Below, in pieces: positions 1-29,755 of a DNA stretch of 64,000 nt; positions within the stretch are counted from its first letter, which is position 1, and the number at the start of each line of letters is the position of its first letter. The translations under genes and the position numbers were made by a program. The notes beneath the pieces are model-generated. The model had not been told where the DNA came from. It saw only the letters and a list, made by a program, of their open reading frames with translations, and made no database searches. The stretch is from Thermonema rossianum DSM 10300 (GTDB lineage Bacteria > Bacteroidota > Bacteroidia > Cytophagales > Thermonemataceae): assembly GCF_000426825.1 (NCBI RefSeq), contig NZ_AUGC01000013.1:1-64000 (forward strand). The letters are read 5' to 3'.

Positions 1-40
1 GTCGCAATCCTTCTTTTAATGGTAGATGCGCTGTGTGAGA
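1..40. repeat. Possible terminal CRISPR-type repeat at the window edge
   Basis: The first bases begin GTCGCAATCC and continue TTCTTTTAATGG, ending near TGTGTGAGA at about base 40. This has the look of the 36-40 base repeats of many Bacteroidota CRISPR arrays, which often start GTYGCAATCC, carry an A+T-rich middle with an AATGG core and end in GAGA or GAAAC. Only one copy is present and no second copy was found in the window, so an array cannot be shown. If real, it is the last repeat of an array lying to the left. It could equally be ordinary intergenic DNA. Confidence 0.22.
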
Positions 41-2758: not shown

Positions 2759-2777
2759 TGCTTTTTTTGTTTTTATT

Positions 2778-4481: not shown

Positions 4482-4493
4482 GGCTTTTTTATT

Positions 4494-5279: not shown

Positions 5280-6141
5280 TTTTTAGCGATAAATTCAACA
5301 TTTGCCTTGCTTCGGCAACGGTTGCCGGCTCACGGCCCAAGGTGCGCACCAGCTTGGCAGCGGCTTCGACCAGCTCGCCATTCGATTTTGCCATGGCGCC
5401 TTCGGGCAAATAGAAGTTGTCTTCCAGCCCTACGCGTATGTGCCCGCCAATGGTGATGGCAGCCGCAGCCAGCGCCCACTGCTTGCGCCCAATGCCGATG
5501 ACCTGCCAATGCGAGCCGGCAGGCACGCTGCGCGCCTGATGCAACAGGTTTTCGGTGGTAGCCGGAATGCCGCCCAACACGCCCATGACGAAGCTGAACA
5601 CGTAGGGTGGTTTCAAAATGCCCATGTCTATGAAAGGCATGGCATTGTTGATATGCCCGCAGTCGAATACTTCCATTTCGGGCAAGGTGCCGGCTTCGTT
5701 CATGCGCTCCAAAAAGAAGCGTATATCCTTGAATGGGTTTTGAAAGACAAAGTCATGATAGAACTGCTTGGTTTTGGGCGAATAAATGGCGTAGTTCATC
5801 GAGCCCATGTTGAGTGCGGCCATGTCGGGTTTCAGTGCCGAAATATGGTGGATGCGCTCTTCTTTGGAAATGCCAATGGCACCGGTCGAGAAGTTGATGA
5901 TGACGTCGGGGCAACGCTTGCGCACTTCGTCGTAAATGCGCCGGTAGGTTTCTATGTCGTAGGCCGGCGCACCGTTGTCTTGCCGGGCGTGAATGTGCAA
6001 GATAGCCGCACCGGCTTCCACGGCACGGCGCCCTTCTTCGGCTATTTCTTCGGGTGTGTAAGGAATATAGGGGCATTGGTCGCGCGTGGCCAGCACGCCC
6101 GTCAGTGCCGCGGTAATCACTACTTTTTTGTCAGATGCCAT
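5272..6141 (-). CDS. BKACE family (DUF849) beta-keto acid cleavage enzyme
   Basis: Cytosolic TIM-barrel protein of 289 residues. The family is typified by 3-keto-5-aminohexanoate cleavage enzyme, which condenses a beta-keto acid with acetyl-CoA to give acetoacetate and a new acyl-CoA. Visible marks are VVITAALTGVLATRDQCPYI, the metal-binding AGAAILHIHARQ (two His), DVIINFSTGAIG, and the late GGHIRVGLEDNFYL. The start at 6141 (MASDKKVV) is preferred over one 28 residues further up, because the longer form adds a low-complexity leader that overlaps the enoyl-CoA hydratase gene. It is in the middle of the acyl-CoA operon, where it may replace an HMG-CoA lyase-type cleavage step; that role is inferred. 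Confidence 0.92.
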   Translation of the reverse strand: MASDKKVVITAALTGVLATRDQCPYIPYTPEEIAEEGRRAVEAGAAILHIHARQDNGAPAYDIETYRRIYDEVRKRCPDVIINFSTGAIGISKEERIHHISALKPDMAALNMGSMNYAIYSPKTKQFYHDFVFQNPFKDIRFFLERMNEAGTLPEMEVFDCGHINNAMPFIDMGILKPPYVFSFVMGVLGGIPATTENLLHQARSVPAGSHWQVIGIGRKQWALAAAAITIGGHIRVGLEDNFYLPEGAMAKSNGELVEAAAKLVRTLGREPATVAEARQMLNLSLKNA

Positions 6142-6163
6142 AGTTATCGGGGGTTTTGTGGGT

Positions 6164-6979
6164 TTAGTGTCCTTTCCATTGGGGTTTTCTTTTTTCCTTA
6201 AATGCCCGTATGCCTTCACGGGCATCTTCGGTTTGCAACAGCTGCATGAGCCTGCTGTTCAGCTCTTCGTGAGAGAGCCGGGGCAAGTGGTGATATACTT
6301 CAATGCCTGCTTGCATGGCCGTGGGGGCACCTTCGCGCAATTGCGCAACCAGCGCCTGCACTTTGGGTAACACCTCTTCGGGCTGCTCCACCACATGAGT
6401 AACCAATCCACAAGCCAACAGTTGGGCAGCTGTGCGCTCTTCGCCCAACAGGCACCAGTTCAATGCCTGACGGGCAGGCATAAAACCGGCAAGGGCTTTC
6501 ATCACCTGAAAGGGAAAAAGCCCGCGCTTTACTTCGGGCAAAGAAAAACGCACCTGTTGGTGGGCTACTGCAAAGGTACTTGCCGCTACCAGCAGCAGGC
6601 CGCCGGCCAGCACATCGCCGGTAATGGCAGAAATCAAGGGCTTGGTAAAACTTTCGAATAGCTCATGCACTACCAAAGGGCGTTGTGCCGCGGGCACCGT
6701 CGATTGATGCTCGATGCCCCCCATCATGGCTTTCAGGTCGGCACCGGCACAAAAGACCGGTCCCCGGGCGCTCAGCACCACAAAGCGCAGTTGCCGGTTG
6801 TTTTGCGCATAAGCCAGTGCGTAAGCCAGCTCATTCAGCATCACCGGGTTGAGTGCATTGCGGCGCCCGGGGTGGTTGAGCACCACCTGCAGGCGGTCGT
6901 CTTCTTCGTGGCATTCAATAAAATGCCAGCGGTAGCGCTGCAGCGCGTCATCGGCTATTTCGGGAAAATAAGCATTCAT
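6164..6979 (-). CDS. Enoyl-CoA hydratase/isomerase family protein
   Basis: Crotonase-fold protein of 271 residues, likely hydrating an enoyl-CoA (for instance a methylglutaconyl-type CoA) made by the carboxylase encoded just upstream. Seen: the N-terminal LNHPGRRNALNPVMLNEL, the oxyanion-hole segment GPVFCAGADLKAMMGG, then AITGDVLAGGLLLVAASTFAVAH. The start codon overlaps the stop of the biotin carboxylase gene by four bases (ATGA form), so the two are translationally coupled. The C-terminus (KEKRKPQWKG) follows the usual F-x-EKRxPxW ending of the family. Exact substrate unknown; the neighbouring carboxylase pair argues for a carboxylated branched enoyl-CoA. Confidence 0.92.
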   Translation of the reverse strand: MNAYFPEIADDALQRYRWHFIECHEEDDRLQVVLNHPGRRNALNPVMLNELAYALAYAQNNRQLRFVVLSARGPVFCAGADLKAMMGGIEHQSTVPAAQRPLVVHELFESFTKPLISAITGDVLAGGLLLVAASTFAVAHQQVRFSLPEVKRGLFPFQVMKALAGFMPARQALNWCLLGEERTAAQLLACGLVTHVVEQPEEVLPKVQALVAQLREGAPTAMQAGIEVYHHLPRLSHEELNSRLMQLLQTEDAREGIRAFKEKRKPQWKGH

Positions 6980-9036
6980 GGTTGTTCTTCTTTTTCGGCG
7001 GTTTGGGTTTCACCGGCAGGTTCTATATGAATGAGGCGGGTACCGGCTTCTATGCTCGCCCCTTCCTGTACATAAACTTCTTGCACAATGCCATCGCTTT
7101 TTGCGTGGATTTGGTTTTCCATTTTCATGGACACGAAAACCAACAAAGGCTGCCCTTTCTTCACATGGTCGCCGGGCTTTACCAACAGGCGCGTCACCTG
7201 TCCGGGCATTTCTGCCTGATAGCTGCCTTCGGGCAGTTCGGTTTCCAGGTCGGGGAAACGGGGCAGCAAAAAAGCCTCAGCGCTTCCGTGCATCGCCTGC
7301 CACACCACATAGCGTTGGTTTTCGGGGCTGGTTTCCACGGGGATGAGTGCCACACGCTGCCCTTCCCATTCAAACACCACCTCTTCCAGACCGGCACTTA
7401 GCAGACGTGCGGTGCCTTCCCAGCCTTCGCCCTTGCAAAAGAAAAGGCTGTCCGACAGGGGCTTGTATTCTACCGTAATGATTTGCCCCCCTATCTTCCA
7501 TCCATAAGGCAAGGTTGGTTGTGGCACGTTGCGCCAATTGGGCAGCAAGGCGGGAAGCAAAGCCCGTTGCCTGCAGGCAAGGGTTGCCCGCCATAGGCTC
7601 AAACCTACTGCCCAAGTACGCAGTAAGGGCAAAGGCAGGCGGCGCCCGGCTTCCAAAAGGTCGTTTCTTTGGTCCAAAAAGCGGGTATGATAGTTGCCTG
7701 CCACGAAGCCGGCATCGGTGCAGAGGGCACGCAGAAAGTCCAGATTGTGCCGCACGCCCACACACAACATCTGCCCCAGGGCATAATGCAGGCGGCGCAG
7801 GGCTTCGTGGCGTTCGCCGGCATGCACAATGATTTTGGCAAGCATGGAATCGTAATAAGGCGACACTTCGCAACCACTCTCTATGCCGCTATCGACACGC
7901 AGGTAAGGCAAAGAGGGCACTTGCCAGCGGTGAATGGTGCCGGTAGAAGGACGGAAATCCTCTGCCGGGTCTTCGGCATACAAACGGGCTTCGATGGCAT
8001 AGCCATGCCTTTGTATCGTTTCTTGCGCATAAGGAAAAGGCTCGCCCGCCGCAATGCGTATCTGCCACTCTACCAAATCCAGCCCGGTGATGGCTTCGGT
8101 AACGGGGTGTTCTACCTGCAGGCGGGTGTTTACTTCCAGAAAATAAAACTCGCCCTTGCCCACGTAGATAAACTCCACGGTGCCGGCGTTGTCGTAGTTC
8201 AATGCCTTTGCTGCTTTCACCGCTGCGGCGCCCATTGCCTGCCGCTCTTCCTCACTCAGCACCGGTGACGGCGATTCCTCAATGATTTTTTGATAGCGCC
8301 GCTGAATGCTGCACTCCCGCTCGAACAAATGCACCACATGCCCGTGCCGGTCGCCCAAAATCTGAAATTCAATATGGCGGGCGGTTTCAAAATATTTTTC
8401 CAGCAAGAGTTCATCGTCGCCAAAGGCATTGAGCGCCTCACGGCGTGCCGCCTCGAAAGCCTCTTCAAAAGCAGCAGGTGCATGCACAATGCGCATGCCC
8501 TTGCCGCCGCCGCCTGCCGCTGCTTTCAGCAAGACCGGATAACCGATGGTTCCGGCGGCTTGCTTCATCTCTTCGCACGAAGCCCCACGCTTGCGGAAGC
8601 CGGGCACCGTGGGCACGCCTTGGGCTTCCATCAGGGCTTTGGCATTGGACTTAGAGCCCATTTGTTCGATGGCATCGGCATGCGGACCAATGAAAAGCAG
8701 GGGTGCCCCGCCCGCTTCCACGCGCTGTTGCGACAGCTGTGCCACCGCCCGGGCAAAGGCAGCATTTTCCGACAAAAAACCATAGCCGGGATGGATGGCA
8801 TCGACTCCCGCGCTCAAGGCAATGTTTAATATTTTTTCGATGTTCAGATAACTTTCGGCGGGGGTGTTCCCTCCCAAAACATAGGCTTCGTCGGCTTCTG
8901 CCACGAAAGGCATAAGGCGGTCGGCATCGCTGTAAACAGCCACGGTAGCAATGCCCATACGGCGGCAGGTGCGTATGATGCGGCGGGCTATTTCGCCCCG
9001 GTTGGCAATCAATATTTTTTTTATGTCGTGCTTCAT
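6976..9036 (-). CDS. Acyl-CoA carboxylase alpha subunit (biotin carboxylase plus BCCP)
   Basis: Protein of 686 residues that carboxylates its own biotin with ATP and bicarbonate, for transfer by the beta subunit encoded just upstream. Order: biotin carboxylase N-terminal domain (KILIANRGEIARRIIRTCRR), ATP-grasp with KAAAGGGGKGMRIVH, ECSIQRRYQKIIEESPSP, EVNTRLQVEHPVTE, a middle linking domain, and a C-terminal biotinyl domain from about residue 615. The biotin site is VSMKMEN with Lys638; the residues before MKM are Val-Ser rather than the common Glu-Ala. Start at 9036 is chosen because MKHDIKKILIANRG is the normal N-terminus and leaves 13 bases after the beta gene. Size and fusion suit a methylcrotonyl- or propionyl-CoA type enzyme. 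Confidence 0.94.
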   Translation of the reverse strand: MKHDIKKILIANRGEIARRIIRTCRRMGIATVAVYSDADRLMPFVAEADEAYVLGGNTPAESYLNIEKILNIALSAGVDAIHPGYGFLSENAAFARAVAQLSQQRVEAGGAPLLFIGPHADAIEQMGSKSNAKALMEAQGVPTVPGFRKRGASCEEMKQAAGTIGYPVLLKAAAGGGGKGMRIVHAPAAFEEAFEAARREALNAFGDDELLLEKYFETARHIEFQILGDRHGHVVHLFERECSIQRRYQKIIEESPSPVLSEEERQAMGAAAVKAAKALNYDNAGTVEFIYVGKGEFYFLEVNTRLQVEHPVTEAITGLDLVEWQIRIAAGEPFPYAQETIQRHGYAIEARLYAEDPAEDFRPSTGTIHRWQVPSLPYLRVDSGIESGCEVSPYYDSMLAKIIVHAGERHEALRRLHYALGQMLCVGVRHNLDFLRALCTDAGFVAGNYHTRFLDQRNDLLEAGRRLPLPLLRTWAVGLSLWRATLACRQRALLPALLPNWRNVPQPTLPYGWKIGGQIITVEYKPLSDSLFFCKGEGWEGTARLLSAGLEEVVFEWEGQRVALIPVETSPENQRYVVWQAMHGSAEAFLLPRFPDLETELPEGSYQAEMPGQVTRLLVKPGDHVKKGQPLLVFVSMKMENQIHAKSDGIVQEVYVQEGASIEAGTRLIHIEPAGETQTAEKEEQP

Positions 9037-9049
9037 GGCTTGTGGATGG

Positions 9050-10651
9050 TTACATGCGGAAAACTCCATAGGTATTGGATGGGCGAATGGATGCATTGTT
9101 CACTACCGAAAGACAAATGCCCAGGTAGTCGCGGGTCAGGCGCGGGTCAATCACACCATCGTCCCATGCTTGGGCGGTGCTGTACCATGCGCTCGAAGTC
9201 TTTTCTATTTCCTGCATCAGGTGTTGGCGCAGCATGGCGGCTTGCTGCTCGTCGAAGGGCATGCCTGCTTTGGCAGCGGCTTGTCTTTGAATAATCTCCA
9301 TGACACCGGCCAGCTGTTCGGGTCCCATCACGGCAATGCGGCTGTTGGGATAGCTCAACAGAAAGCGCGGACGGTAAGCCCGCCCCGCCATGGCGTAGTT
9401 GCCGGCTCCGTAAGAAGCCCCCACCATGAGCGTAATATGCGGCACCTCGCTGTTCGAAACGGCATTGATAAGCTTGGCGCCATGTTTGATAATGCCTTCT
9501 TGCTCATATTGCTTGCCCACCATGAAACCGGTGATGTTCTGTAAGAAAAGAATGGGTTTTTCTTCGCGGTTGCACAGCTCTATGAAGTGCGCCCCCTTGT
9601 TGGCGGAATCGGAAAACAAAACGCCGTTGTTGGCAATAATGCCTACCGGATAGCCGTGAATTTCAGCCCAGCCGGTCACCAGGGTGCGCCCCCACAAAGG
9701 CTTGAACTCCAAAAAGCGCGAATCGTCCACGATGCGGGCAATCAGCTCCCGCATATCGAAGGGGTATTTGGGGTCGGGCGGCACCAGCTGTATGATCTCT
9801 TCTGCCGGATAGCGTGGCGGTTTAGGGCTGTGCCGCGGCACAAAGTGCGGGCGGGGCGGGCGCAGCTGCGCCACCAATTCGCGTGCCTTACGGATGGCAT
9901 CCAGTTCGTTCTCGGCAAGGTAGTCGGCAACGCCCGATTGGGTGGCATGCATCTCGGCACCGCCCAGACTTTCTTCATCCACTATTTCATTGGTTGCCAT
10001 CTTTACCAAAGGCGGCCCCGCCAGGAACACTTTGGCTTGGTTGCGCACAAAGATGGTGTAATCGCTCATGCCGGGCACATAAGCCCCTCCGGCAGTGGCA
10101 TTTCCCATCACCACCGAAATGGTGGGAATGCCCATTTTTGAACGTTGGGTAATTTCACGAAAGATGGCACCGCCATAGTTGAATATCTTGGCTTGCTCGG
10201 GCAGGTTCGCCCCTGCCGACTCCACAAAATTAATCACCGGCAGTGCATTCTCTCTTGCAATCTCATTGAGCCGCAAGCTTTTCTGCAAGGTAGGCAGGTC
10301 AATGGCTCCGCCTTTTTCCGTGCCTACGTTCGAAGTAATCATGGTCCAGCGTCCGCAAACCAAGCCAATGCCCCCCACGGTGGTTCCCCCGGGCGAAGAG
10401 CTTTTGGCGCCCAGCCCGGCCAGTGGCAACAGCTCCAAGAAAGGCGAGCCTTCATCCAACACATACTCTATGCGTTCGCGAGCCAACAGCTTGCCCTGCT
10501 TGCGTGCCTTTTGTATGTGCTTTTCTTTACCTTGAAAAAGGCAGGCTTCATAATGTTTTTGCAACTCCTCGAGCAGCTGTTGCATTTGTGCGGCATGTTG
10601 CCGTGTGGTTTCGGTGGGTTGCCAACGGCTTTTCAATACAGGCATCATCAT
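9050..10651 (-). CDS. Acyl-CoA carboxylase beta subunit (methylcrotonyl-CoA carboxylase-like)
   Basis: Carboxyltransferase of 533 residues that moves carboxyl from biotin to an acyl-CoA. N-terminal half: KARKQGKLLARERIEYVLDEG and FVESAGANLPEQA, then IPTISVVMGNATAGGAYVPGM. C-terminal half: RTLVTGWAEIHGYPVGIIANNG, ENITGFMVG-like LQNITGFMVGKQYE, and GASYGAGNYAMAGRAYRPRF. The length near 535 and the C-terminal NTYGVFRM resemble methylcrotonyl-CoA and geranyl-CoA carboxylase beta chains more than propionyl-CoA carboxylase (about 510). It directly follows the TetR regulator with a four-base overlap, so it is the first enzyme gene of the operon. Substrate is inferred from these length and ending features only. 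Confidence 0.93.
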   Translation of the reverse strand: MMMPVLKSRWQPTETTRQHAAQMQQLLEELQKHYEACLFQGKEKHIQKARKQGKLLARERIEYVLDEGSPFLELLPLAGLGAKSSSPGGTTVGGIGLVCGRWTMITSNVGTEKGGAIDLPTLQKSLRLNEIARENALPVINFVESAGANLPEQAKIFNYGGAIFREITQRSKMGIPTISVVMGNATAGGAYVPGMSDYTIFVRNQAKVFLAGPPLVKMATNEIVDEESLGGAEMHATQSGVADYLAENELDAIRKARELVAQLRPPRPHFVPRHSPKPPRYPAEEIIQLVPPDPKYPFDMRELIARIVDDSRFLEFKPLWGRTLVTGWAEIHGYPVGIIANNGVLFSDSANKGAHFIELCNREEKPILFLQNITGFMVGKQYEQEGIIKHGAKLINAVSNSEVPHITLMVGASYGAGNYAMAGRAYRPRFLLSYPNSRIAVMGPEQLAGVMEIIQRQAAAKAGMPFDEQQAAMLRQHLMQEIEKTSSAWYSTAQAWDDGVIDPRLTRDYLGICLSVVNNASIRPSNTYGVFRM

Positions 10652-11271
10652 GGCGTATCGGTTTGAATGAGTTTTTCGATTTTACTTTTCCCTTTTTCGG
10701 TAGCATAAGGCAGCAGCAGATGCCACATGCGCAAGCGTGCCTCCTGCCAGTTGTCGGCTTGGCGCCGGATGGCCTGCTGCATGGGAAAAAAGAAAAGCAC
10801 CATCCACAGCGTATGTGCCAGGCTGTCGTATCCCTCGGGGCGGGCTTGCAAGTTGCCGGCGCCCACGGCATAGTCCAGCATGCCCTTCAGGTAGGCAATA
10901 TGTGCTTCTATGTGCGCACGCAGGGCATTGGCTACGTCCTCGCTTTCGTGGGCTACGTCGAGGGTGTTCAGATAAAAAAAGCGGAAGCGGTACGTCAGCT
11001 CCAGAATGGCTTGCGTTTTTTCATGGGCATGCTCGAAAGTAGGCAATTGCAACACCGCCGATAAATGCTGTCTGCGTTCTTCTTCCAGCTGCTCGTAAAG
11101 AGCCTGCAGGATGCTCTCCTTCGATTTGAAATGATAGGCAAGGTTGCCGGGACTCATGCCCGCCGCTTCGGCAATATCTTTCATACTGACTTGCGCAAAA
11201 CCTTGCCGGTTGAATAAATCCAGTGCCGCCTCCAATATTCTTTCCTTGGTACTCGTCTTTGATAGAAGCAT
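10648..11271 (-). CDS. TetR/AcrR family transcriptional regulator
   Basis: Repressor-type protein of 207 residues. The N-terminal helix-turn-helix domain spans about residues 8-55 (TKERILEAALDLFNRQGFAQVSMKDIAEAAG split over the HTH, then GNLAYHFKSKESILQALYEQ), typical of TetR. The C-terminal two-thirds are helical and would bind a ligand, perhaps an acyl-CoA. It is the first gene of an eight-gene leftward operon and overlaps the carboxylase gene by four bases, so it very likely regulates that operon together with itself. An imperfect palindrome lies eight bases upstream of its start. Fatty-acid operons in many bacteria use TetR repressors of this kind. Confidence 0.93.
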   Translation of the reverse strand: MLLSKTSTKERILEAALDLFNRQGFAQVSMKDIAEAAGMSPGNLAYHFKSKESILQALYEQLEEERRQHLSAVLQLPTFEHAHEKTQAILELTYRFRFFYLNTLDVAHESEDVANALRAHIEAHIAYLKGMLDYAVGAGNLQARPEGYDSLAHTLWMVLFFFPMQQAIRRQADNWQEARLRMWHLLLPYATEKGKSKIEKLIQTDTP

Positions 11272-11296: not shown

Positions 11297-11649
11297 AATA
11301 CAGACTTATTATAATGTTTTATTTCAAAATATAAAAATTTTGTACAACTTTTTTACGGTTTTTTCATAAAAAGCAGGCACAAGCGGAATTTACTGTGCCG
11401 GACAAAAGGTGGTGCAGCCCACCGGTTCGAAACGAAGCATGTCATTTCCCGCTTGCGCTCGAAGTGACAAGGGAAGAAAACGAAACGACAAAGGGAAAAT
11501 GGTCGAAAAGGTAAGATTAAACGCACGAAAGGATAAAGGGTAGCTCAAAACAACAGACAGAAGGCAAGGAAGCGCAAAAAAAGATGGTTGAAGTACGAAG
11601 CACCGGGCTTGCTTGTTTCCCTGGCCAATGCCCCGCCAAAGCAAATAAA
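11297..11649. other. Intergenic region with a degenerate repeat copy
   Basis: No gene is convincing here. A 99-residue frame on the minus strand (11390-11689) runs through the repeat and the terminator and looks spurious. Bases about 11443-11472 hold one copy of the GATTTCTC...TTCGAAATGACAA repeat family (here CATTTCCCGCTTGCG then CTCGAAGTGACAAGG). Bases 11297-11390 are A+T-rich and must contain the promoter of the leftward TetR operon. Confidence 0.5.
11443..11472 (+). repeat. Dispersed GATTTCTC/TTCGAAATGACAA-type element, copy 1
   Basis: A diverged copy of an intergenic element found again four times at 18.26-18.53 kb. Here it reads ATTTCCCGCTTGCG followed by CTCGAAGTGACAAGG. It lies between two genes that point left. 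Its similarity to the other copies is about two-thirds by eye, so it may be an old copy. Confidence 0.45.
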
Positions 11650-11674
11650 AAAGCGGACTTTGCCGGTCCGCTTT
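11650..11674. terminator. Intrinsic terminator after the RIC/YtfE gene
   Basis: Perfect nine-base arms AAAGCGGAC and GTCCGCTTT around a seven-base loop. In the leftward direction the right arm is followed by a T-run (TTTTTTATTTGC), the normal form of a Rho-independent terminator. It ends the transcript of the nitric-oxide stress genes, whose last stop codon is at 11703. The other strand also has CCTTTT after it, so it may work both ways. Confidence 0.8.
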
Positions 11675-11702
11675 CCTTTTATGCTGCACGCTGTAAAGCG
11701 CT

Positions 11703-12437
11703 TTACACGGTTTCGCCTCTTAACTGTGCCTCTAAATCAATGGCTTTCGGAAAAAGCAAGTTGTTTTCCAGATGGATGTGCATCAGCAGGTTTTTTATGA
11801 AGTCGTTCAGCAGGGCATACACCGCTTTGAAGGTGTTGCAGGCATCGGCCGGCGGGCTAAAATGGTTGGTAATCTGTTGCAGACGTTTGAGCCGCTGCCC
11901 TTCCTCCTCGTGTTCGGCTTCCATGACATGCACCGGGTTGCGCACGGAACCAAAGGGGGGCATATCGGGCACCGTTCCTTCGGCAGCTGCTTTTTCAAGT
12001 TTTTGGATATAGGGGAAAAGCATCAACTCTTCTTTCTTCATATGCACAACCAGATGGTCAGCCATGCTTTCCCAGATTTGCTGCACTTCGGCAAGCTCGG
12101 GATGGCGCCCCCCATGTACTTGCACTACCTTTGCCAGCAAAGGACGAATTTGCGGGATTTGTGCTTCCACAAAAGCATGGTGGTTGTCTAAAATGAAGCG
12201 AATAAGCTCTGTAGCAGACCACTTGCTGAAGTCATGTGTTTCTTCTTCGTCTTTCTGCAAAGCCTGCAGTTCTTCCACCACCGTAGATACCGGCACACCG
12301 GCTTTGGTGCAGGCCGTTTCCAATGATTGCTTGCCTCCACAACAGAAATCAAGCCCCCACTTTTGAAAAACCGTTGCACGCCGTGGGTCTTCATTGACCA
12401 ACTCGCCCAGTGTCTTTTGATTCAGGTCTGTCATCAT
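11703..12437 (-). CDS. ric: Iron-sulfur cluster repair di-iron protein (RIC/YtfE/ScdA family)
   Basis: Cytosolic protein of 244 residues that helps restore iron-sulfur clusters damaged by nitric oxide or oxidants. The short N-terminal ScdA_N domain carries the family motif DFCCGGKQSLETAC (residues about 30-43). The C-terminal part is a hemerythrin-like four-helix bundle with His and Glu ligands in NHHAFVEAQIPQI, HMKKEELMLFPYI, HVMEAEHEEEGQ and HIHLENNLLFP. It follows the truncated globin gene by 53 bases and the Rrf2 regulator beyond, forming a compact nitric-oxide response set. The start at MMTDLNQKT matches the family. Confidence 0.93.
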   Translation of the reverse strand: MMTDLNQKTLGELVNEDPRRATVFQKWGLDFCCGGKQSLETACTKAGVPVSTVVEELQALQKDEEETHDFSKWSATELIRFILDNHHAFVEAQIPQIRPLLAKVVQVHGGRHPELAEVQQIWESMADHLVVHMKKEELMLFPYIQKLEKAAAEGTVPDMPPFGSVRNPVHVMEAEHEEEGQRLKRLQQITNHFSPPADACNTFKAVYALLNDFIKNLLMHIHLENNLLFPKAIDLEAQLRGETV

Positions 12438-12490
12438 AGCTTTGTCATTTAAAGGTGAAAGGATTGGGACGACTTTTTATGCTTGCATCG

Positions 12491-12880
12491 TTACATCAAA
12501 GGTTGCGAACCATGCTCGCGGTGAAATTTTATCTTGCTCCAGAACATCATTGCCATGCGCCCGGCACGCCATTTGGCTTCTTCGGCTTTGGGTCCTTCAA
12601 AAAGACCATCCACGGTTTCGTTGAACAGCTGCACCCAGCGGTTGAAGTGCTCCTCGCCTACGGGCATATGGGCATGTGGCAGAAAAGGACTGCCTTGGTA
12701 GGTGCGTTTATCCAACAAAACCGTCTCCCAAAAGCGATACATTTTTTCCAAGTGCTCCGGCCACCGGTCCCGAATCACACCGTTGAAAATTCCTCCCAAC
12801 AAGGGGTCCACACGCACTTGCGCATAAAAGCTATCTACCATCTGCTCTATGTCACCGCGGTTTTGAATGTCGCTTTTCAT
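12491..12880 (-). CDS. Truncated hemoglobin (2/2 globin, group III-like)
   Basis: Heme protein of 129 residues, shorter than classical globins, probably binding O2 or NO in the cytosol. Seen: DIEQMVDSFYAQVRVDPLLGGIFN (B and E helix region, with the FYxxVRxDPLLG pattern), YRFWETVLLDKRTYQGSPFLPHAHMPVGEEHFNRW, which holds the likely proximal His and the group III HMPVG-type loop, and a C-terminal WRAGRMAMMFWSKI helix. The start at 12880 (MKSDIQNR) is preferred over one 18 residues upstream. Placed between a Cys-rich Rrf2 regulator and the RIC repair gene, its job is probably nitric-oxide handling. Confidence 0.9.
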   Translation of the reverse strand: MKSDIQNRGDIEQMVDSFYAQVRVDPLLGGIFNGVIRDRWPEHLEKMYRFWETVLLDKRTYQGSPFLPHAHMPVGEEHFNRWVQLFNETVDGLFEGPKAEEAKWRAGRMAMMFWSKIKFHREHGSQPLM

Positions 12881-12934
12881 AAAAGGATATTTTTGTCTTT
12901 TTTTAAACAAAAAAAGAGAAGTTTTTGTCACCAA

Positions 12935-13390
12935 TCAATGACTTTCGTCATCCTCGGAAGAGAAACGCAGGCGCGCGCCGGCATCGACTACCTCAGTAGC
13001 TGCCTTGCGGATAGTTGTCTGCTGCAGGCTTTTTTTCAGTGCATCCCGCAAGCCCACTACTTGATAATGCAAAGGGCAAGGGTTTTGACTGCTGCAAACA
13101 GGCAGCCCCAACACGCAGCTGTTAAAATAAGCCTCTCCCTCGAAAAGCGTAACTATTTCGTAGAGCGAGCGCTTTTGTTGAGATGCTGACATACTAAATC
13201 CGCCTTTTTTTCCGCGCAATGAGTCCACCAGGCCCGCACGCGCCAGCCGCTGCAATACTTTCGAAGCAAAAGCTTCGGGGATGTCGGTGGCTTCTGCCAC
13301 TTCCTTTACCGCCACGCGTTTTCCTTCCATGCTGCACTTGGCTATATATACGGCCGCACGCATGGCATATTCACAAGCTTTTGAAAACAT
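12935..13390 (-). CDS. Rrf2 family regulator with iron-sulfur type cysteines (NsrR/IscR-like)
   Basis: Winged-helix DNA-binding protein of 151 residues. The N-terminus MFSKACEYAMRAAVYIA and the wing segment DSLRGKKGGFSMS are typical of Rrf2. Three cysteines at 92, 99 and 105 followed by His108 (CVLGLPVCSSQNPCPLH) match the iron-sulfur binding pattern of NsrR and IscR, so the protein can probably sense nitric oxide or cluster status. It lies 54 bases upstream of the globin gene and is co-directional with it and with RIC. The gap to the PorP-like gene upstream is only 14 bases, so transcription may also read in from that pair. Confidence 0.9.
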   Translation of the reverse strand: MFSKACEYAMRAAVYIAKCSMEGKRVAVKEVAEATDIPEAFASKVLQRLARAGLVDSLRGKKGGFSMSASQQKRSLYEIVTLFEGEAYFNSCVLGLPVCSSQNPCPLHYQVVGLRDALKKSLQQTTIRKAATEVVDAGARLRFSSEDDESH

Positions 13391-14939: not shown

Positions 14940-15800
14940 TTATCCTTGTAAAAGCTTTTTGACCTGCAGCAAAAGTGTCTCGTCTTCCACCTGCTTGAGC
15001 AGCTGCATCACTTCGGCTTTCAGCCGGCTTACTTTGTCTTTTTTCGGGGCGGGGCTTGTCTTCCGTTTGTTTTTACTGCCCGCTTGTTTTGTGGGGGATT
15101 GCAGAAGCGTTTCACGCAGCTGTGCCACTTCGGCCTCGCTCATTTTGGGCACTTGGCGCAATACTTTCGCCGGCACTTTCAGCTCGCCTTTCAGTATTTT
15201 ATTTTTCAGCCCGGGCATGCCTTCGCTCAGGCGGTCCAAGCCTTCGGCATACTGTCCATCGCGTTTGATGGTCTTGTCGGACACCTTAAACACATTTGCC
15301 AGCTTTTCGGCAGTAGAACCTTCTTCTTTGGGTTGTTCTTCTGCCTGCCCGGCAAACTGCTTGAGATTGGCAATGTTGCCGCTTTTTTGTTTGAAGCGGT
15401 TGTACTGATAGCCTCGCAGGTAAGCCATTTCTTCCTTGGTCAGGTTGCGCTTGCCCAGCTGGTTGTTCACCATCCAGTCTTTGACTGCTTCTATATTTTC
15501 AAACTCACGCAGCTCTATTTTGAAAGGCAATTTGTGCCTTTGACAAATGCCATAGCGGTGGTGTCCGTCGATAAGCACATAGCGCTGTGCCCGGCTGTCT
15601 TTCCACACCACCAGCGGGTCGCGGCATCCTTCCTCCAAAATATTTTGCTCAAGCTGCTTATACTCTTCATCACTCAAAGGACGGATGAGGTCGCGCAACT
15701 CATCCAGAATCTCGATATGCTCTTTGATATATACTTCGGTATGTTCTACCTCCTGTTGCGCCGTTTGCAACAAGGCTGCAAATTTCTTTTTCTTGCTCAT
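14940..15800 (-). CDS. parB: ParB-type partition protein
   Basis: Protein of 286 residues in the ParB/Spo0J superfamily. The N-terminal nuclease-like domain has LIRPLSDEEYKQLEQNI, then DPLVVWKD and LIDGHHRYGICQRH, the ParB box. The middle part (EEMAYLRGYQYNRFKQ, VFKVSDKTIKRD) carries a helix-turn-helix, and the C-terminus is Lys-rich then helical with Leu repeats (LKAEVMQLLKQVEDETLLLQ) and would dimerise. It lies 27 bases after parA in the same direction. Together with the adjacent iterons and Rep gene this is the stable-inheritance module of the replicon. The arrangement is of plasmid type; a chromosomal ParB would normally sit with gidAB-type genes. Confidence 0.88.
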   Translation of the reverse strand: MSKKKKFAALLQTAQQEVEHTEVYIKEHIEILDELRDLIRPLSDEEYKQLEQNILEEGCRDPLVVWKDSRAQRYVLIDGHHRYGICQRHKLPFKIELREFENIEAVKDWMVNNQLGKRNLTKEEMAYLRGYQYNRFKQKSGNIANLKQFAGQAEEQPKEEGSTAEKLANVFKVSDKTIKRDGQYAEGLDRLSEGMPGLKNKILKGELKVPAKVLRQVPKMSEAEVAQLRETLLQSPTKQAGSKNKRKTSPAPKKDKVSRLKAEVMQLLKQVEDETLLLQVKKLLQG

Positions 15801-15827
15801 TCTGCTCTGCTTGTTATTTTGGGTGGT

Positions 15828-16595
15828 TTAAGAAGTGGTTTGTGCCAAACGGGTGGCTGCTTCTACCTCTTTGGCAAGCTGCATGTAATCCTCTGCGCCA
15901 TAGCAGTGGGGATTATAGCTGAAAATATCTTGATGCATGGCAGAGGCTTCGGTCAGTGCCACATTGCTGCGGATCACCGTATCGAAAACCTTGCCCTTGT
16001 AAATGCTGCGCACCTGCTCCACAATAGAGCGGCGAATGACCGTGTGGTCCACTTGTGTAAGCAACATGCCGGCTACCTCCAGCTTTGGATTCAGGTTTTT
16101 GCGCAGCTCATCAATCAAGTTCAAAATGGTTTGCAAGCCTTTGGTGGCAAGGTATTCTGCCTGCACGACAACCAACACCTCCGAAGCAGCTATCAGTGCA
16201 TTGATGGTTAGAATGGAAAGACTCGGGGGGCAATCGATGAGCACATAGTCATAAGCGTTTTTAACGCCCTCTAAGGCTTCTTTCAGGCGGAAGTAACCAT
16301 TGACATCATTTTTCAGGCGAAGTTCCGCCTCAGACAGCTCTAAATCGGCCGGCGCTATATGCAAACCTTCGTCAAGTATCTCCACAGGCAAAGGTTCCGA
16401 TTCACAAATGGCATGGTAAAGATTCCGGGCGGGTTCCTCCAAGCCCACATGCTGCGTCAGGTTGGCTTGGGGGTCGATGTCAACCAATAGCACACGTTTG
16501 CCCATGAGCGAAAGGGCTTTTCCCAAATTGAGCGTGCTGGTGGTTTTGCCCACACCGCCTTTATGATTGACCACGGCTATAATTCTTGGCTGCAT
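15828..16595 (-). CDS. parA: ParA-type partition ATPase
   Basis: Walker-type ATPase of 255 residues that positions plasmid copies with ParB. Seen: the deviant Walker A motif KGGVGKTTSTLNLG at residue 12, VLLVDIDPQANLTQHVG (Walker A-prime), YVLIDCPPSLSILTINALIAA (Walker B) and EYLATKGLQTILNL. The size and the lack of an N-terminal helix-turn-helix domain suggest a small ParA (type Ib-like or Soj-like). It is divergent from the rep gene, with the origin between them. Three palindromes within 260 bases upstream of the start are candidate operators or centromere sites. Confidence 0.93.
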   Translation of the reverse strand: MQPRIIAVVNHKGGVGKTTSTLNLGKALSLMGKRVLLVDIDPQANLTQHVGLEEPARNLYHAICESEPLPVEILDEGLHIAPADLELSEAELRLKNDVNGYFRLKEALEGVKNAYDYVLIDCPPSLSILTINALIAASEVLVVVQAEYLATKGLQTILNLIDELRKNLNPKLEVAGMLLTQVDHTVIRRSIVEQVRSIYKGKVFDTVIRSNVALTEASAMHQDIFSYNPHCYGAEDYMQLAKEVEAATRLAQTTS

Positions 16596-16734
16596 AGAAT
16601 TTCAAGATTTCGCTTGTTCGATACACTCCTCAATATTAGAAAAAAAATCTGATAACTCCCTCTGCTTTTACTGAATTGTACAAAACAAAGACTGCCTTTC
16701 AAGCCCTTTGGAAAAGGCGGATGGCGTGCTCGAA

Positions 16735-16751
16735 ACTTTCACTTTGAAAGT
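16735..16751. promoter_or_regulatory. Palindrome upstream of parA, candidate parS or operator
   Basis: Perfect seven-base arms ACTTTCA and TGAAAGT with a three-base centre CTT. It is 140 bases upstream of the parA start. Partition loci often have ParA/ParB sites here, but the sequence does not match the chromosomal parS consensus. Confidence 0.35.
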
Positions 16752-16816
16752 CAAAGCTGCGCAGACTGATTCTTCCCCTTTTCGAAAGAAAAAAAAGACA
16801 CAAAATTGAAAGACAA

Positions 16817-16855
16817 CACAATATTGTGAATATTGATATATACTTGAGTATATAT
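16817..16855. promoter_or_regulatory. Two adjacent palindromes upstream of parA
   Basis: First, a perfect 12-base palindrome CACAATATTGTG at 16817-16828. Eight bases later, nine-base arms ATATATACT and AGTATATAT around TG at 16836-16855. They lie between the parA start and the A+T-rich strip. They could be ParB-binding (centromere) sites, a parA operator, or a Rep or host-factor site. Confidence 0.4.
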
Positions 16856-16938
16856 TGTAGGGGTATTTTTTACAAAAAATTTTGTTTTTTTATTTTTTTT
16901 AAAATTATATATGGTTGATATTTTTAACTTTTGTTAAA

Positions 16939-16955
16939 TAACACTTTTCATAAGC
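16939..16955 (+). repeat. Isolated upstream iteron
   Basis: TAACACTTTTCATAAGC, one mismatch from the array consensus TAACACTTTTTATAAGC and in the same direction. It lies at the right border of the A+T-rich strip, 174 bases before the first tandem copy. A distant single iteron could take part in looping or fix the opening site. Confidence 0.8.
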
Positions 16956-17112
16956 AAAAGGACGCTGTTTAAGGGCGTGAGCATTTTATGGAAGAGGTGC
17001 CGGCATTGTTGTTGATGCCTGCTTTAGAATTTTATTTTGATGCAACAGTGTTGCAAAATGCTTGTAAGTATTTGTAAATGAGAAACTTTGCACTTCAAAG
17101 CAACCGCTTAAA

Positions 17113-17236
17113 TAACACTTTTTATAAGCGAACTAACACTTTTTATAAGCGAACTAACACTTTTTATAAGCCTAAATAACACTTTTTATAAGTCAAACTA
17201 ACACTTTTTATAAGCGAACTAACACTTTTTATAAGC
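17113..17236 (+). repeat. Six tandem iterons of the replication origin
   Basis: Six direct copies of TAACACTTTTTATAAGC start at 17113, 17134, 17155, 17177, 17199 and 17220. All are identical except the fourth, which ends in T. Start-to-start spacing is 21 or 22 bases, two turns of the helix, so Rep would bind on one face. The four- or five-base linkers are mostly GAAC. The rep gene follows in the same direction, so these are very likely the sites for the Rep_3 initiator, serving origin opening and copy control. Confidence 0.93.
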
Positions 17237-17346
17237 CTTTGCTTTGGGATTCAAAGTTTGTTTGACACCGCCTTTTTTTCTGTTTTTGAAAAATTGTATT
17301 TTTTTGACTTACTTTCCCTATTGAATAAGCCAAGAGGCTGTTTTAT

Positions 17347-18255
17347 ATGAAGTTGGAAAAAATCAATGAACGCACGGAAGTGCGGCAGCATAATTTCCTG
17401 ACGGAGGCGCGTTATGAGATGACAGCCTGCGAAATGGATATTTTATTTTGCTTGCTCAACGAGATTCGCGAGGATGAAAGCCGCAATTTCTATCAGCTGA
17501 AAGTAAAGGAAATAGAGCTGCTCACCGGACGCCAGTGGAACTATCAACAGTGCCGGGAATCTACTTTTCGCCTTGCCGAGCGGGTATTTGAGGTTATCAA
17601 TGAAAACGGCAACTTGCTTCAATTTAGTTTGGTTTCTACGGCAGAGTATAAAATGGGGGAAGGCATCATAGAGCTGGAGGTATCGCCCAAGGTGATTCCT
17701 TATCTTTATGAGCTGAAGAAGAACTACACGGCTTTTCGCTTGTTGGCGTCACTGCGTTTTACTTCGAAGTATGCCAAGCGTTTTTATTTGTATTGTTCGC
17801 GATGGAAAGATGTGGGCAGTTTCACCACGACCATAGATGAGTTGAAAATCAAGCTGAAGCTCAAAGATCCGAAGCGCAAGAAAGAAAAGTATGTGCAGGT
17901 TCGCCAGTTCGTGGACAAGGTGTTGGAGGTGGCTGTGCAAGAAATCAACGAAGTGTCGGAGCTGATGGTGCAATATACGCTTATCAAAGAGGGGCGCAAA
18001 TACACCAAAGTGCGTTTTAATATTGAGCGAAAAAAAGACGTGGCCGAGGAGGCGCTTGTCGATGAGCGGCAATTGCGGGCACATGCGCTGTTGAAGGAAA
18101 TGGGCATTACGCGCCCCGATTATGTGAAAGCGGTGCTTAGCAGCGAAGATAAAATGAAGGCGCTTTTTAAATGGAACTATGAACGCAAACAGGGAAAATT
18201 GGGGAAATTGGAAAATCCATCCGGTCATTTGTTGAAAGTGTTGGGCTTGGTTTGA
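17347..18255 (+). CDS. Rep_3 family replication initiator protein
   Basis: Plasmid initiator of 302 residues, the RepB/RepE-like family with two winged-helix domains. N-terminal features are QHNFLTEARYEMTACEMDIL and LNEIREDESRNFYQLKVKEI, a layout common to Bacteroidota Rep_3 proteins. The second domain includes RFTSKYAKRFYLYCSRWKDV and the DNA-contact part TIDELKIKLKLKD followed by a basic stretch KRKKEKY. It is directly downstream of seven iterons and divergent from parAB. The C-terminal 60 residues (KALFKWNYERKQGKLGKLENP) are an extra module seen in some initiators. It defines this molecule as carrying a plasmid-type replicon. Confidence 0.92.
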   Translation: MKLEKINERTEVRQHNFLTEARYEMTACEMDILFCLLNEIREDESRNFYQLKVKEIELLTGRQWNYQQCRESTFRLAERVFEVINENGNLLQFSLVSTAEYKMGEGIIELEVSPKVIPYLYELKKNYTAFRLLASLRFTSKYAKRFYLYCSRWKDVGSFTTTIDELKIKLKLKDPKRKKEKYVQVRQFVDKVLEVAVQEINEVSELMVQYTLIKEGRKYTKVRFNIERKKDVAEEALVDERQLRAHALLKEMGITRPDYVKAVLSSEDKMKALFKWNYERKQGKLGKLENPSGHLLKVLGLV

Positions 18256-26590: not shown

Positions 26591-29500
26591 TTATGAAGCG
26601 AAATCGGTGCCTGCCAACTGAATATAACTGCCTTTGTGGGCGTTGTGTGTAGCTATGAGTGCCGTTCTGATGCGCTCTCGCATAGACTGCACGTGAGAGA
26701 TTACACCGATGACTTTGCCCTCGCAAGCCAGCTGTTCAAGTACGTTCATCACTTCGAAGAGGGTTTTCTCGTCGAGGCTGCCAAAGCCTTCATCTATGAA
26801 AAAGAAATGCTGCTGTATGCGATGGGTATCTTGTAGCAGCTCGGAGAGCGCCAAAGCAAGGCTCAACGATAAAATAAAACGCTGCCCGCCCGAGAGGCTT
26901 TCGAGGGGGCGCGTGTATTGGTTCAGGCGGTCACAGATTTGGATTTCTATTTTGTTGTTTTCTGTGGTGATCTCAACTGACAATGCATTGTTGGTAAGTT
27001 GCTCAAAGTGTTTGTTGGCTAAGCTGTTGACTTTATTCAGGTAGTTTCCGAGTACGAAGTTCAGGAAGCCGTTGCCGTCGTTGAGTTTGTTTATTCTTTC
27101 CCATATTTCCAGCGTTTTCCTGCTTTTCTCATACGACTCCATAAGCTGCTTTTTCTTATTGAGCCTTTCTTCCATGGCTTTTATAACTTCCGAAATCCGT
27201 CCTTTCTCTTCTTGCAAGTGCTTAACTTCCTGTTTTATTTCTTTATACTGCCGGCGGAGTTGTGCTCGCTCTTCAGCTGATTCGGGTACACTGAGCGCCT
27301 GCCGGGCTTTTTGAATGTCTTGTAACTGCTTGTTCAAAGCTTCGTGTCTACTACGCAAAGTATCTCTTTGGCGTATGTTGTTTTGAATGCTTTGCTTTTC
27401 ATTGAGTATTTGTTGCACCTCTTCTTCTGTGCCGAACAGCTCGCTGTATGTTTGCAGCAACTGCCGTATGCTTTGCTCAATGTCGCTTATCTCTTTTTTC
27501 AAAGTGACGATGCTGTCTTGAATACTCTTGAGCTGTCCTTCTTCCGTATGTTGATCTTTTTCTATTTGCTCCAGCTGCTCTTTGGCTTGATTGCAGGCAG
27601 TTTCTGCTTCTTGATATTCCCTGTGAATTGCTTGTACGTGTTTCTCTAACTCCTCTATGCTTTTGTTTTGATATTCAGGGTGCTGCGTTTCGTATGCTTC
27701 TATTTCTTCTTGAAGCCGCTGTATGGTATTATGTAATTCCTGGATAATGCCTTCCTGCTTGGCAATGTGTTGGGCTTTTTCCTGTTCTTCTTTTTGTATT
27801 TTCTCTTTTTCTGCATTCAGTTGCAGAAGCGTTTTCTCATTCTCTTTTAGTTCATTTTGCTTTTGCTCTACCTGCTGTATAATGTCAGCCAACATTTTGT
27901 TGAAGGCGTCTTTTTCGCGGGGGGGCTCGCCCCCGGGAAGTGGAAGTGCCGGAAAGTCGCCGGCTTTGGTTTGGTTATAGGTTTCTATGCCACTTATGAA
28001 AAGTGTTTTTAAATTGTAGAGGTGGTTCAATTCTTCCTGCATGTGCTGCATTTTTTGTGATATATCTTTTAATAAAGAAGCTTGTTGTTGCAGCTCTTCA
28101 TGAGATATTGAGTGGATGCTAAGGTTTTCGGTGACATGTTCTGTTGAGCCGCATAGAGGGCAGGGCTCACCGGCTTTAAGGTTTTGCCGCAAGCTGCGCA
28201 GCTTCATTTCAGTTTTTGTGCTGATAAGCAGCTCTTGTAGGCTTTGATTCAAGTGTGCAAAGCTGCATTCTTTTACCGCCTTTTTTAACAGCGTGGATAA
28301 GTGTTTGTTTTCGGGCTTGTCTATTTGTTTTAGCCTGCCTGCCAGGCTTTTGTAAAGCTTCTTGCATTCTTCGTGTTTTGTGTAGTAGTCGTAAGAAAAA
28401 GTCTTTAAGTTCTGCAATTGTTGGATAAGTACCGGCAGATTTGTTGCCTCCAGTTGCTTGATGTTTGCCTCTGTTGCCTGGATGCGTTGCAACAGCTCTT
28501 GAAGCTTTTTGTCTATATGCTTGCGCTCTGATATCTGCTTTTTCTGTTCTTGCTTTTGCGATTCTATGTTTTTTTGGGCTTTCTGTAGCTCTCGATGCCA
28601 CTTAATGTATGTTTCCAAATGGCTGATATTCTGCATCTTTTTTGATAACCCCTCATAACGCACCTTGGATGCTTGGTATTTGGTTTTGTATTCTTGTATC
28701 TTTTGTTGTCTGTCTTGTATGCTTTGTGCGAGTTGCCGGGCTTTTTCCTGGTTTACTTTCAGGCTTTCCCTCTTTTGGTCGCGAATATTTAAAGGTCTTT
28801 CGAAATGCTCTTGTGCTATTTGCAAACGCTCTTGCTGCGTGTCGAGATTTTGAGGAAGCTGCGCCAGGCTGCTTTCTATTTCGGAAAGCTCTTTTTGCAG
28901 TTTTTCCAGCTCTTGTTCTTTTATCCGGGCAAGCTCTATTTGTTTTACGCGCTCTTCCAGTTGTCCGGCTTCGGCTTGCCGGCCGGTAAGCCGTTTCAAA
29001 AGCTGCTCTTCTTCGCTTTTTTTCTGTTGAAGGGTTTCTTCATTGACGTCTTCGTATTCAGCCAGACGGCTTTTGTTGTTTTCAAAGCTTTGCCGGGCTT
29101 CCTTGAGCTTTTCTTTTGCTTTTTCTTTTATCTTTTCATAAATGTTTAAATCGAAAATCTCCCTTAAGAAATCACTTCTTTTAGATGGCTGCTCTTTAAT
29201 AAACTTATCGAAATTACCCTGTGGCAAAACAATGGTGCGGGTGAAATGTTCTATTGGTATGTTTTTCAAAGCAGCTTGCTCTTCGCCTTTCTTTTCATCG
29301 AGTGCTTGCCATTCTTGCTTTCCTTGGTTGAAACTCTCCCAAAGGGCTCTGCCCCGGGCTTCCGTGCCGTGATAACGATAATAGTTTTTGTCTGCTGAAC
29401 CTTCGTAGTCGTCTTCTTGAAATAAAGTGCCGGTTTTCTTTTTTCGCTTTCTTGCCTGCACACCGAGGCGGTAGGTGAAAGCATAAATGTGCGTGTCAAA

Positions 29501-29749: not shown

Positions 29750-29755
29750 ATTTGG

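What the first reader, a model, noticed from the sequence alone, without database searches (positions are those of the whole stretch)
14940..18255. Iteron-type replication origin with parAB and a Rep_3 initiator
Seven copies of a 17-base iteron, six at 21-22 base spacing, lie between divergent parA and rep genes, with a 75-base A+T-only strip next to the outlying copy. This is what a plasmid origin looks like, yet the flanking 60 kb carries metabolic, repair and secretion genes of chromosomal kind. The molecule is probably a megaplasmid or chromid, or a chromosome that took up a replicon. A lone iteron 174 bases from the array is not a common layout and suggests DNA looping.
Basis: partly seen in the sequence, partly recalled or inferred. 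Interest (0 to 1): 0.78.

Follow-up and report, generated by a model that had tools for sequence, protein, structure and literature searches.

The report
Conserved 74-kb plasmid's replication origin
This is the likely start point for copying a roughly 74,000-base circular plasmid that two related bacterial species have kept since they split; it belongs to a known plasmid type, but its initiator-binding sites seem to sit unusually far from the strand-opening element seen in its relatives.

Summary
Seven 17-base iterons (6 at 21-22 bp spacing plus one 174 bp upstream) lie between divergent parA and a Rep_3 initiator gene. The "A+T-only" strip is really 91% A+T over 75 bp. The window is most of a 73,867-bp contig that almost certainly closes into a circle. 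Its two ends are the two halves of one CRISPR array. A 59,284-bp contig in a sister species is a circular permutation of it, and each contig bridges the other's ends. So this is a plasmid of about 74 kb, too small for a megaplasmid. It has chromid-like traits: chromosome-like composition, divergence equal to the chromosome's, and the genus's only SbcCD. It carries no rRNA or tRNA, and no gene on it was shown to be essential. Outlying iterons are common in related plasmids. Here the palindrome is 296 bp from the array (297 in the sister), with the lone iteron in between. Either the origin is split, or a second conserved palindrome near the canonical position does the opening.

The parts
17347..18255 (+). 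rep: Rep_3-family initiator, 302 aa, two winged-helix domains (Rep3_N, Rep3_C)
   Evidence: Pfam PF01051 104.7 bits (cut-off 22.4) and PF21205 42.9 bits (cut-off 21.1); profile of 13 relatives matches RepE of F (1rep, 2z9o, E 1e-25), pi of R6K (2nra, E 1e-17) and a Rep winged-helix domain (1hkq); 94% aa identity in the sister species
15828..16595 (-). parA: ParA/Soj-type partition ATPase, 255 aa, divergent from rep
   Evidence: PF13614 184 bits; solved ParA/Soj relatives at E 1e-51 and weaker
14940..15800 (-). parB: ParB-like partition protein, 286 aa
   Evidence: PF02195 E 3e-4 (below cut-off), TIGR00180 E 5e-7 (below cut-off); tblastn relatives annotated 'ParB N-terminal domain' next to ParA on Cytophagales plasmids
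17113..17236 (+). iteron array: six 17-bp iterons at 17113, 17134, 17155, 17177, 17199, 17220
   Evidence: six iterons at 21-22 bp also in the sister species
16939..16955 (+). lone iteron TAACACTTTTCATAAGC, 174 bp start-to-start upstream of the array
   Evidence: sister has TGACACTTCTCATAAGC, also exactly 174 bp from its array, although the 157-bp spacer is only 59% identical with no gaps
16784..16895 (.). near-invariant block: strongest non-coding conservation upstream of the lone iteron; contains palindrome A and other inverted repeats; candidate opening element / host-factor site
   Evidence: 93.8% identity between the two species, against 59-74% for the spacer, parA-side and rep-leader segments
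16817..16828 (.). palindrome A, CACAATATTGTG, of the CACAANNTTGTG origin module shared with other Cytophagales Rep_3 plasmids
   Evidence: exact palindrome upstream of rep in 13 of 31 loci, 0.02 expected; 0 hits in 380 kb of this chromosome
16865..16939 (.). A+T-rich strip (90.7% A+T), candidate DNA-unwinding region
   Evidence: 0.005% of 60-bp windows of the plasmid are as unstable or more so
17041..17055 (.). palindrome B, TGCAACAGTGTTGCA, conserved in the sister, 71-72 bp before the array; alternative opening-element position
   Evidence: local conservation peak (0.9) inside an otherwise diverged spacer
1..37 (+). leader-side half of a CRISPR array at the contig end; the trailer half is at the other end (C12:73753-73867); marks circular closure

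Best explanation
This is the replication and partition region of a stable, low-copy-type circular plasmid of about 74 kb, vertically inherited with its host. Rep (winged-helix Rep_3 initiator) binds the six-iteron array (inferred from family). Together with host proteins at the upstream conserved block, it opens A+T-rich DNA between parA and the array and loads the replisome (inferred). The lone iteron, held at exactly 174 bp from the array in two species, is a second Rep site. Rep bound there and at the array can pair by looping within one molecule, or handcuffing between molecules, and so tie initiation to Rep concentration and copy number (inferred, by analogy with F incC and V. cholerae ori2). 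ParA and ParB, encoded divergently, segregate the copies (inferred). Shown here: gene identities, iterons, circular topology, co-divergence with the chromosome, and conservation of the lone iteron, its spacing and the upstream block.
For: Rep_3 with both winged-helix domains over cut-off and RepE/pi structural relatives. Iterons far above chance and specific to this locus. The same 21-22 bp iteron architecture just upstream of rep in plasmid relatives. The same divergent gene order in Runella slithyformis pRUNSL01, a complete 107-kb circular plasmid, with two outlying iterons and a six-iteron array, and on a contig of another genus of the family. Closure: contig ends are trailer and leader halves of one CRISPR array, the intact chromosomal array on C2 shows the same flanks, and no other contig has an open array end. 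Sister contig G001:C6 is circularly permuted and each contig bridges the other's ends. Plasmid/sister nucleotide identity of 78.5% equals chromosome/sister 77-81.5%. dnaA is on another contig. The 174-bp distance is identical in both species despite a 59%-identical spacer. Looping between outlying and origin iterons is described for F (PMC13028717) and handcuffing for V. cholerae ori2 (PMC6090056).
Against: Rep binding, copy number and looping are not measured; 'low copy' rests only on the presence of parAB. No parS was identified. The circle is inferred from two draft assemblies, not from a closed assembly or reads. DnaA-box evidence is weak: one 1-mismatch site, ATATTCACA, near 16825 in both species.
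Confidence: 0.85

Rival explanations
1. Split origin: the near-invariant block with palindrome A is the functional opening module, and the iteron array has been set back from it by about 210 bp. The lone iteron is the module-proximal Rep site and initiation needs Rep-mediated looping to bring the array to the module, so the loop is activating rather than only inhibitory.
For: The module sits 77-93 bp before the array in the relatives, including 8 of 8 held-out plasmids, but 296/297 bp here, with the lone iteron at +122/+123 from palindrome A. The block is 93.8% conserved. The module profile finds this block as best hit in both plasmids; 1 of 200 shuffles of each intergenic region scores as high.
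Against: The profile match is weak here (6.2 and 7.6 bits) and rests mostly on the palindrome; the repeat part alone is not found. Palindrome B lies near the canonical position.
Confidence: 0.4
2. Canonical origin in disguise: palindrome B (17041-17055) and the DNA after it replaced the ancestral module at the usual distance from the array. Palindrome A and the lone iteron upstream are only regulatory (copy control, parA operator or parS).
For: Palindrome B is conserved in both species and 71-73 bp before the array, about one helical turn nearer than the usual 83. Several relatives carry outlying iterons upstream of the module, about 230-260 bp before the array.
Against: B does not have the CACAANNTTGTG sequence, is not found in the other loci, and the DNA after it has diverged between the two species, whereas block A is near-invariant.
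Confidence: 0.4
3. A small chromid: the replicon is indispensable because it carries core genes no longer on the chromosome.
For: Plasmid-type rep/par genes; tetranucleotide signature correlation 0.956-0.969 with the chromosome mean, inside the chromosome's own range 0.885-0.978; the only SbcD in both species is on it, with SbcD on chromosomal or unplaced contigs in three other genomes of the family; the only RarA in this genome is on it.
Against: No rRNA or tRNA genes. Isocitrate dehydrogenase is a third copy beside two chromosomal ones. The sister has no RarA at all, so RarA is dispensable. SbcCD is not generally essential (established knowledge). Average chromid size in PMC12456017 is 1.98 Mb, though the range goes down to 0.04 Mb.
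Confidence: 0.3
4. The region is part of the chromosome (an integrated plasmid).
For: Chromosome-like genes and composition; the assembly is a draft.
Against: Mutual bridging of contig ends in two species and CRISPR-half closure.
Confidence: 0.03

Closest known systems
Runella slithyformis DSM 19594 plasmid pRUNSL01 (NC_015693, 107 kb, circular)
   Same: parB-parA divergent from a Rep_3 gene; six-iteron array at 21-22 bp just upstream of rep; outlying iterons upstream; a related palindrome/TATTTG module
   Different: Iteron sequence differs (CGACAGAATCCTCGT); two outliers instead of one; the module lies about 90 bp from the array and the outliers are on its far side
Hymenobacter/Pontibacter/Rufibacter Rep_3 plasmids (e.g. 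NZ_CP141185, NZ_CP012644)
   Same: Rep 39-48% identical, iterons mostly ending in TTTTATAAG at 21-22 bp, CACAANNTTGTG module upstream of the array
   Different: Module-array distance 77-93 bp instead of 296; many Hymenobacter origins carry several inverted outliers; no close relative of this ParA found within the fetched flanks, except one
F plasmid RepE/oriS/incC
   Same: Winged-helix Rep_3 initiator, iterons, outlying iterons proposed to loop to the origin
   Different: F incC has five iterons downstream of repE; here a single iteron lies upstream of the array
rrn plasmids of Persicobacteraceae (PMC10645730)
   Same: Long-maintained Rep_3 plasmids with parAB in Cytophagales; Persicobacter and Aureibacter plasmids carry relatives of this ParB
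   Different: No rRNA operon here

Membership tests
Rep_3 iteron plasmid | Initiator with Rep3 WH1 and WH2 domains | tested here: met
   both Pfam domains over the curated cut-offs; RepE/pi matched by profile
Rep_3 iteron plasmid | Direct repeats (iterons) beside rep at about two-helical-turn spacing | tested here: met
Rep_3 iteron plasmid | Separate circular replicon | tested here: met
   CRISPR-half closure and circular permutation against the sister contig; inferred from drafts, not a closed assembly
Rep_3 iteron plasmid | Initiator binds the iterons and drives replication | not testable with these tools
   needs EMSA and a mini-replicon assay
ParABS partition system | ParA Walker-type ATPase | tested here: met
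ParABS partition system | ParB DNA-binding partner encoded with parA | tested here: inconclusive
   below Pfam and NCBIfam cut-offs; relatives annotated ParB next to ParA; single-sequence structure model too poor to use, pLDDT 48.5
ParABS partition system | parS centromere | tested here: inconclusive
   conserved palindromes at 16817-16828 and 16836-16855 are candidates only
Chromid | Plasmid-type replication and partition | tested here: met
Chromid | Nucleotide composition like the chromosome | tested here: met
Chromid | Carries core genes found on chromosomes of other species | tested here: inconclusive
   sole SbcCD; no rRNA/tRNA; IDH redundant; essentiality untested
Megaplasmid | Size at least 0.1-0.35 Mb or 5% of the genome (thresholds quoted in PMC12456017) | tested here: not met
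   73,867 bp, 2.5% of 2.95 Mb

The most novel reading that the evidence does not exclude
A split Rep_3 origin: the strand-opening module and the iteron array, held 77-93 bp apart in the other Cytophagales Rep_3 origins measured, are separated by 296-297 bp in this genus. A single iteron in between, at an exactly conserved 174 bp from the array, is needed to bridge them by an activating Rep loop.
Probability: 0.35. Interest if true: 0.6.

Novelty: new member of a known kind. Interest (0 to 1): 0.42.

Why it matters
It documents a 59-74 kb plasmid that co-diverged with its chromosome in two species and holds the genus's only SbcCD, a case for studying how plasmids become permanent. It also exposes an apparently undescribed conserved origin module (CACAANNTTGTG plus TATTTG repeats, fixed 77-93 bp before the iterons) shared by Cytophagales Rep_3 plasmids. 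That could help map unwinding elements and build vectors for a poorly served bacterial order. If the split origin is real, it offers a natural test of whether an outlying iteron can activate rather than inhibit initiation.

Tried and rejected
16S rRNA placement: not found in the assembly; three small contigs read entirely as N, so rrn location cannot be judged, but C12 and the sister contig contain no N and no Rfam hit. Isocitrate dehydrogenase as a plasmid-only core enzyme: rejected, two chromosomal IDHs exist. Promoter search with the Bacteroidota motif TTG-N18-22-TAnnTTTG in the intergenic region: nothing conserved in both species. DnaA boxes: only a 1-mismatch site. AlphaFold of ParB from a single sequence: pLDDT 48.5, discarded, no fold search run. 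Cas genes next to the chromosomal array with the same repeat: none found in 8 ORFs. Literature on a Cytophagales Rep_3 origin module: nothing found in two searches of the open library, which does not exclude subscription papers.
Full report
Observation. Seven copies of TAACACTTTTTATAAGC lie at 16939 and at 17113, 17134, 17155, 17177, 17199 and 17220, all on the + strand, five exact and two with one mismatch. Chance expectation is 0.04 in the window; in the 2.95-Mb draft the only other hit with up to 2 mismatches is one with 2. They lie between parA (15828-16595, -) and rep (17347-18255, +), with parB (14940-15800, -) beyond parA. The A+T strip is 90.7% A+T over 75 bp, not A+T-only.

Genes. Rep matches Rep3_N and Rep3_C above curated cut-offs. 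A profile of 13 relatives matches RepE of F, pi of R6K and a further Rep winged-helix domain among solved structures. ParA is a Soj-type ATPase. ParB is below the Pfam and NCBIfam cut-offs, but its relatives are annotated ParB next to ParA on Persicobacteraceae plasmids. A single-sequence structure model was too poor to use.

The molecule. The window is bases 1-64000 of a 73,867-bp contig, C12. Two independent lines say it is a circle. First, its ends are a CRISPR repeat: the 3' end holds the trailer-side hairpin plus two repeats, and the 5' end holds a repeat plus the leader. The intact chromosomal array on C2 has the same flanks in the same order, and no other contig has an open array end. 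Second, the sister species' contig G001:C6 (59,284 bp) is collinear with C12 but circularly permuted. It runs through C12's end/start junction (46876 to 46954), while C12 runs through G001:C6's end/start junction (11385 to 12775). One end of G001:C6 encodes what looks like a transposase fragment (identification by eye), which would explain the assembly break.

Plasmid, megaplasmid or chromid. At 74 kb (2.5% of the assembly) it is below the megaplasmid thresholds quoted in PMC12456017. Nucleotide identity to the sister is 78.5% on the plasmid and 77.2-81.5% on three chromosomal stretches, so it has co-diverged with the host. Its tetranucleotide signature correlates 0.956-0.969 with the chromosome mean, inside the chromosome's own range. 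DnaA is on contig C2. There is no rRNA or tRNA on either plasmid. SbcD is encoded only on the plasmid in both species and on other contigs in three family members, one of them a multi-megabase contig. RarA is only on the plasmid here and absent from the sister. The plasmid isocitrate dehydrogenase is a third copy. I call it a stable, chromid-like plasmid, not a demonstrated chromid.

The lone iteron. Outlying iterons are common among relatives. Most of the Hymenobacter origins examined carry 3-7 inverted copies upstream of the array (about 300-950 bp before it); others have one or two about 230-260 bp upstream; two have further copies downstream of rep. But the lone iteron is under constraint here. 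Both species have it exactly 174 bp from the array, although the 157-bp spacer is only 59% identical and has no gaps, and both share the T-to-C change in its core.

A conserved origin module. The most conserved non-coding DNA upstream of the lone iteron is 16784-16895 (93.8%). It holds CACAATATTGTG. The pattern CACAANNTTGTG occurs upstream of rep in 13 of 31 Rep_3 loci (0.02 expected) and 0 times in 380 kb of this chromosome. In relatives it is followed by two or three (A/T)TATTTGT repeats and a TTGTAGGG-like end. A profile trained on ten loci, without the window's genus, found the module in all eight held-out plasmids at 12.7-61.5 bits. The best of 80 shuffles scored 8.7; a control model of the rep leader found essentially nothing, and a model of the DNA just upstream of the module found a weaker signal in four of the eight. 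Start of module to first array iteron is 77-93 bp in these loci (for L004 and Runella, where the script mis-set the array start, it is about 80-90 bp read by hand). The loci share ancestry, so they are not independent draws.

What differs here. In the window's genus the palindrome is 296 bp (297 in the sister) from the array and the lone iteron is 122/123 bp from it. The profile match is weak (6.2 and 7.6 bits; 1 of 200 shuffles as good in each) and rests mainly on the palindrome. A second palindrome, TGCAACANTGTTGCA at 17041-17055, is conserved in both species 71-73 bp before the array, and the DNA after it in this species looks by eye like the repeats, but it is not found in other loci. Either the origin is split, or palindrome B marks the opening site and block A plus the lone iteron are regulatory. 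I cannot separate these by sequence and rate them about equally.

Mechanism. Shown: anatomy, conservation, topology, co-divergence. Inferred from the family: Rep monomers bind the array cooperatively, host factors assist, A+T-rich DNA opens, helicase loads (PMC4980987). Inferred by analogy: the lone iteron pairs with the array through Rep, as proposed for F incC-oriS loops (PMC13028717) and for V. cholerae ori2 handcuffing (PMC6090056). ParAB segregates the copies.

Known versus new. The replicon is a new member of the Rep_3 iteron plasmids of Cytophagales. Its closest full layout match is Runella pRUNSL01. Long-term maintenance of Rep_3 plasmids with parAB in this order is known from the Persicobacteraceae rrn plasmids (PMC10645730). 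I found no description of the module in the open library. The possible split origin is the most novel reading.

Noticed in passing
C12:1-37 and C12:73753-73867 (window 1-37 and L032 end): The plasmid carries a CRISPR array (37-nt repeat) with a leader like that of a chromosomal array (C2:15730-17006); no cas gene was recognised among the plasmid proteins scanned, and the sister plasmid lacks the array.
   Followed up: partly
window 26591-30991: SbcCD on the plasmid is the only SbcD in both species of the genus; three other genomes of the family have it on other contigs.
   Followed up: yes
window 45138-46427: The only RarA/MgsA of this genome is on the plasmid; the sister has none.
   Followed up: yes
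window 1271-11271: Conserved cluster: acyl-CoA dehydrogenase with SCP2 domain, AMP-binding ligase, SDR, beta-keto acid cleavage enzyme, biotin-dependent carboxylase subunits and a TetR regulator; looks like an acyl-CoA degradation pathway.
   Followed up: partly
window 11703-13390: Likely nitrosative-stress cluster: Fe-S repair di-iron protein (RIC), possible truncated globin (no NCBIfam match, call by eye), Rrf2 regulator; it coincides with the sister contig's break.
   Followed up: no
L032:5965-7401 (C12:69965-71401): A 478-aa isocitrate dehydrogenase on the plasmid, 95% identical in the sister, beside two different chromosomal isocitrate dehydrogenases.
   Followed up: yes
L063-L071, L116-L123, L114 upstream of rep: Shared origin module (CACAANNTTGTG palindrome plus TATTTG repeats) 77-93 bp before the iteron array in Cytophagales Rep_3 plasmids.
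   Followed up: yes
L004 (1501+910 to +1501) and L005 (1501+947 to +1250): Further copies of the iteron core downstream of rep at larger spacing (about 55-160 bp), like an incC region.
   Followed up: no
G000:C11:60525-61043 (L044, L085): A second Soj-like ParA in a stretch of low G+C (0.444); may mark another mobile element.
   Followed up: no
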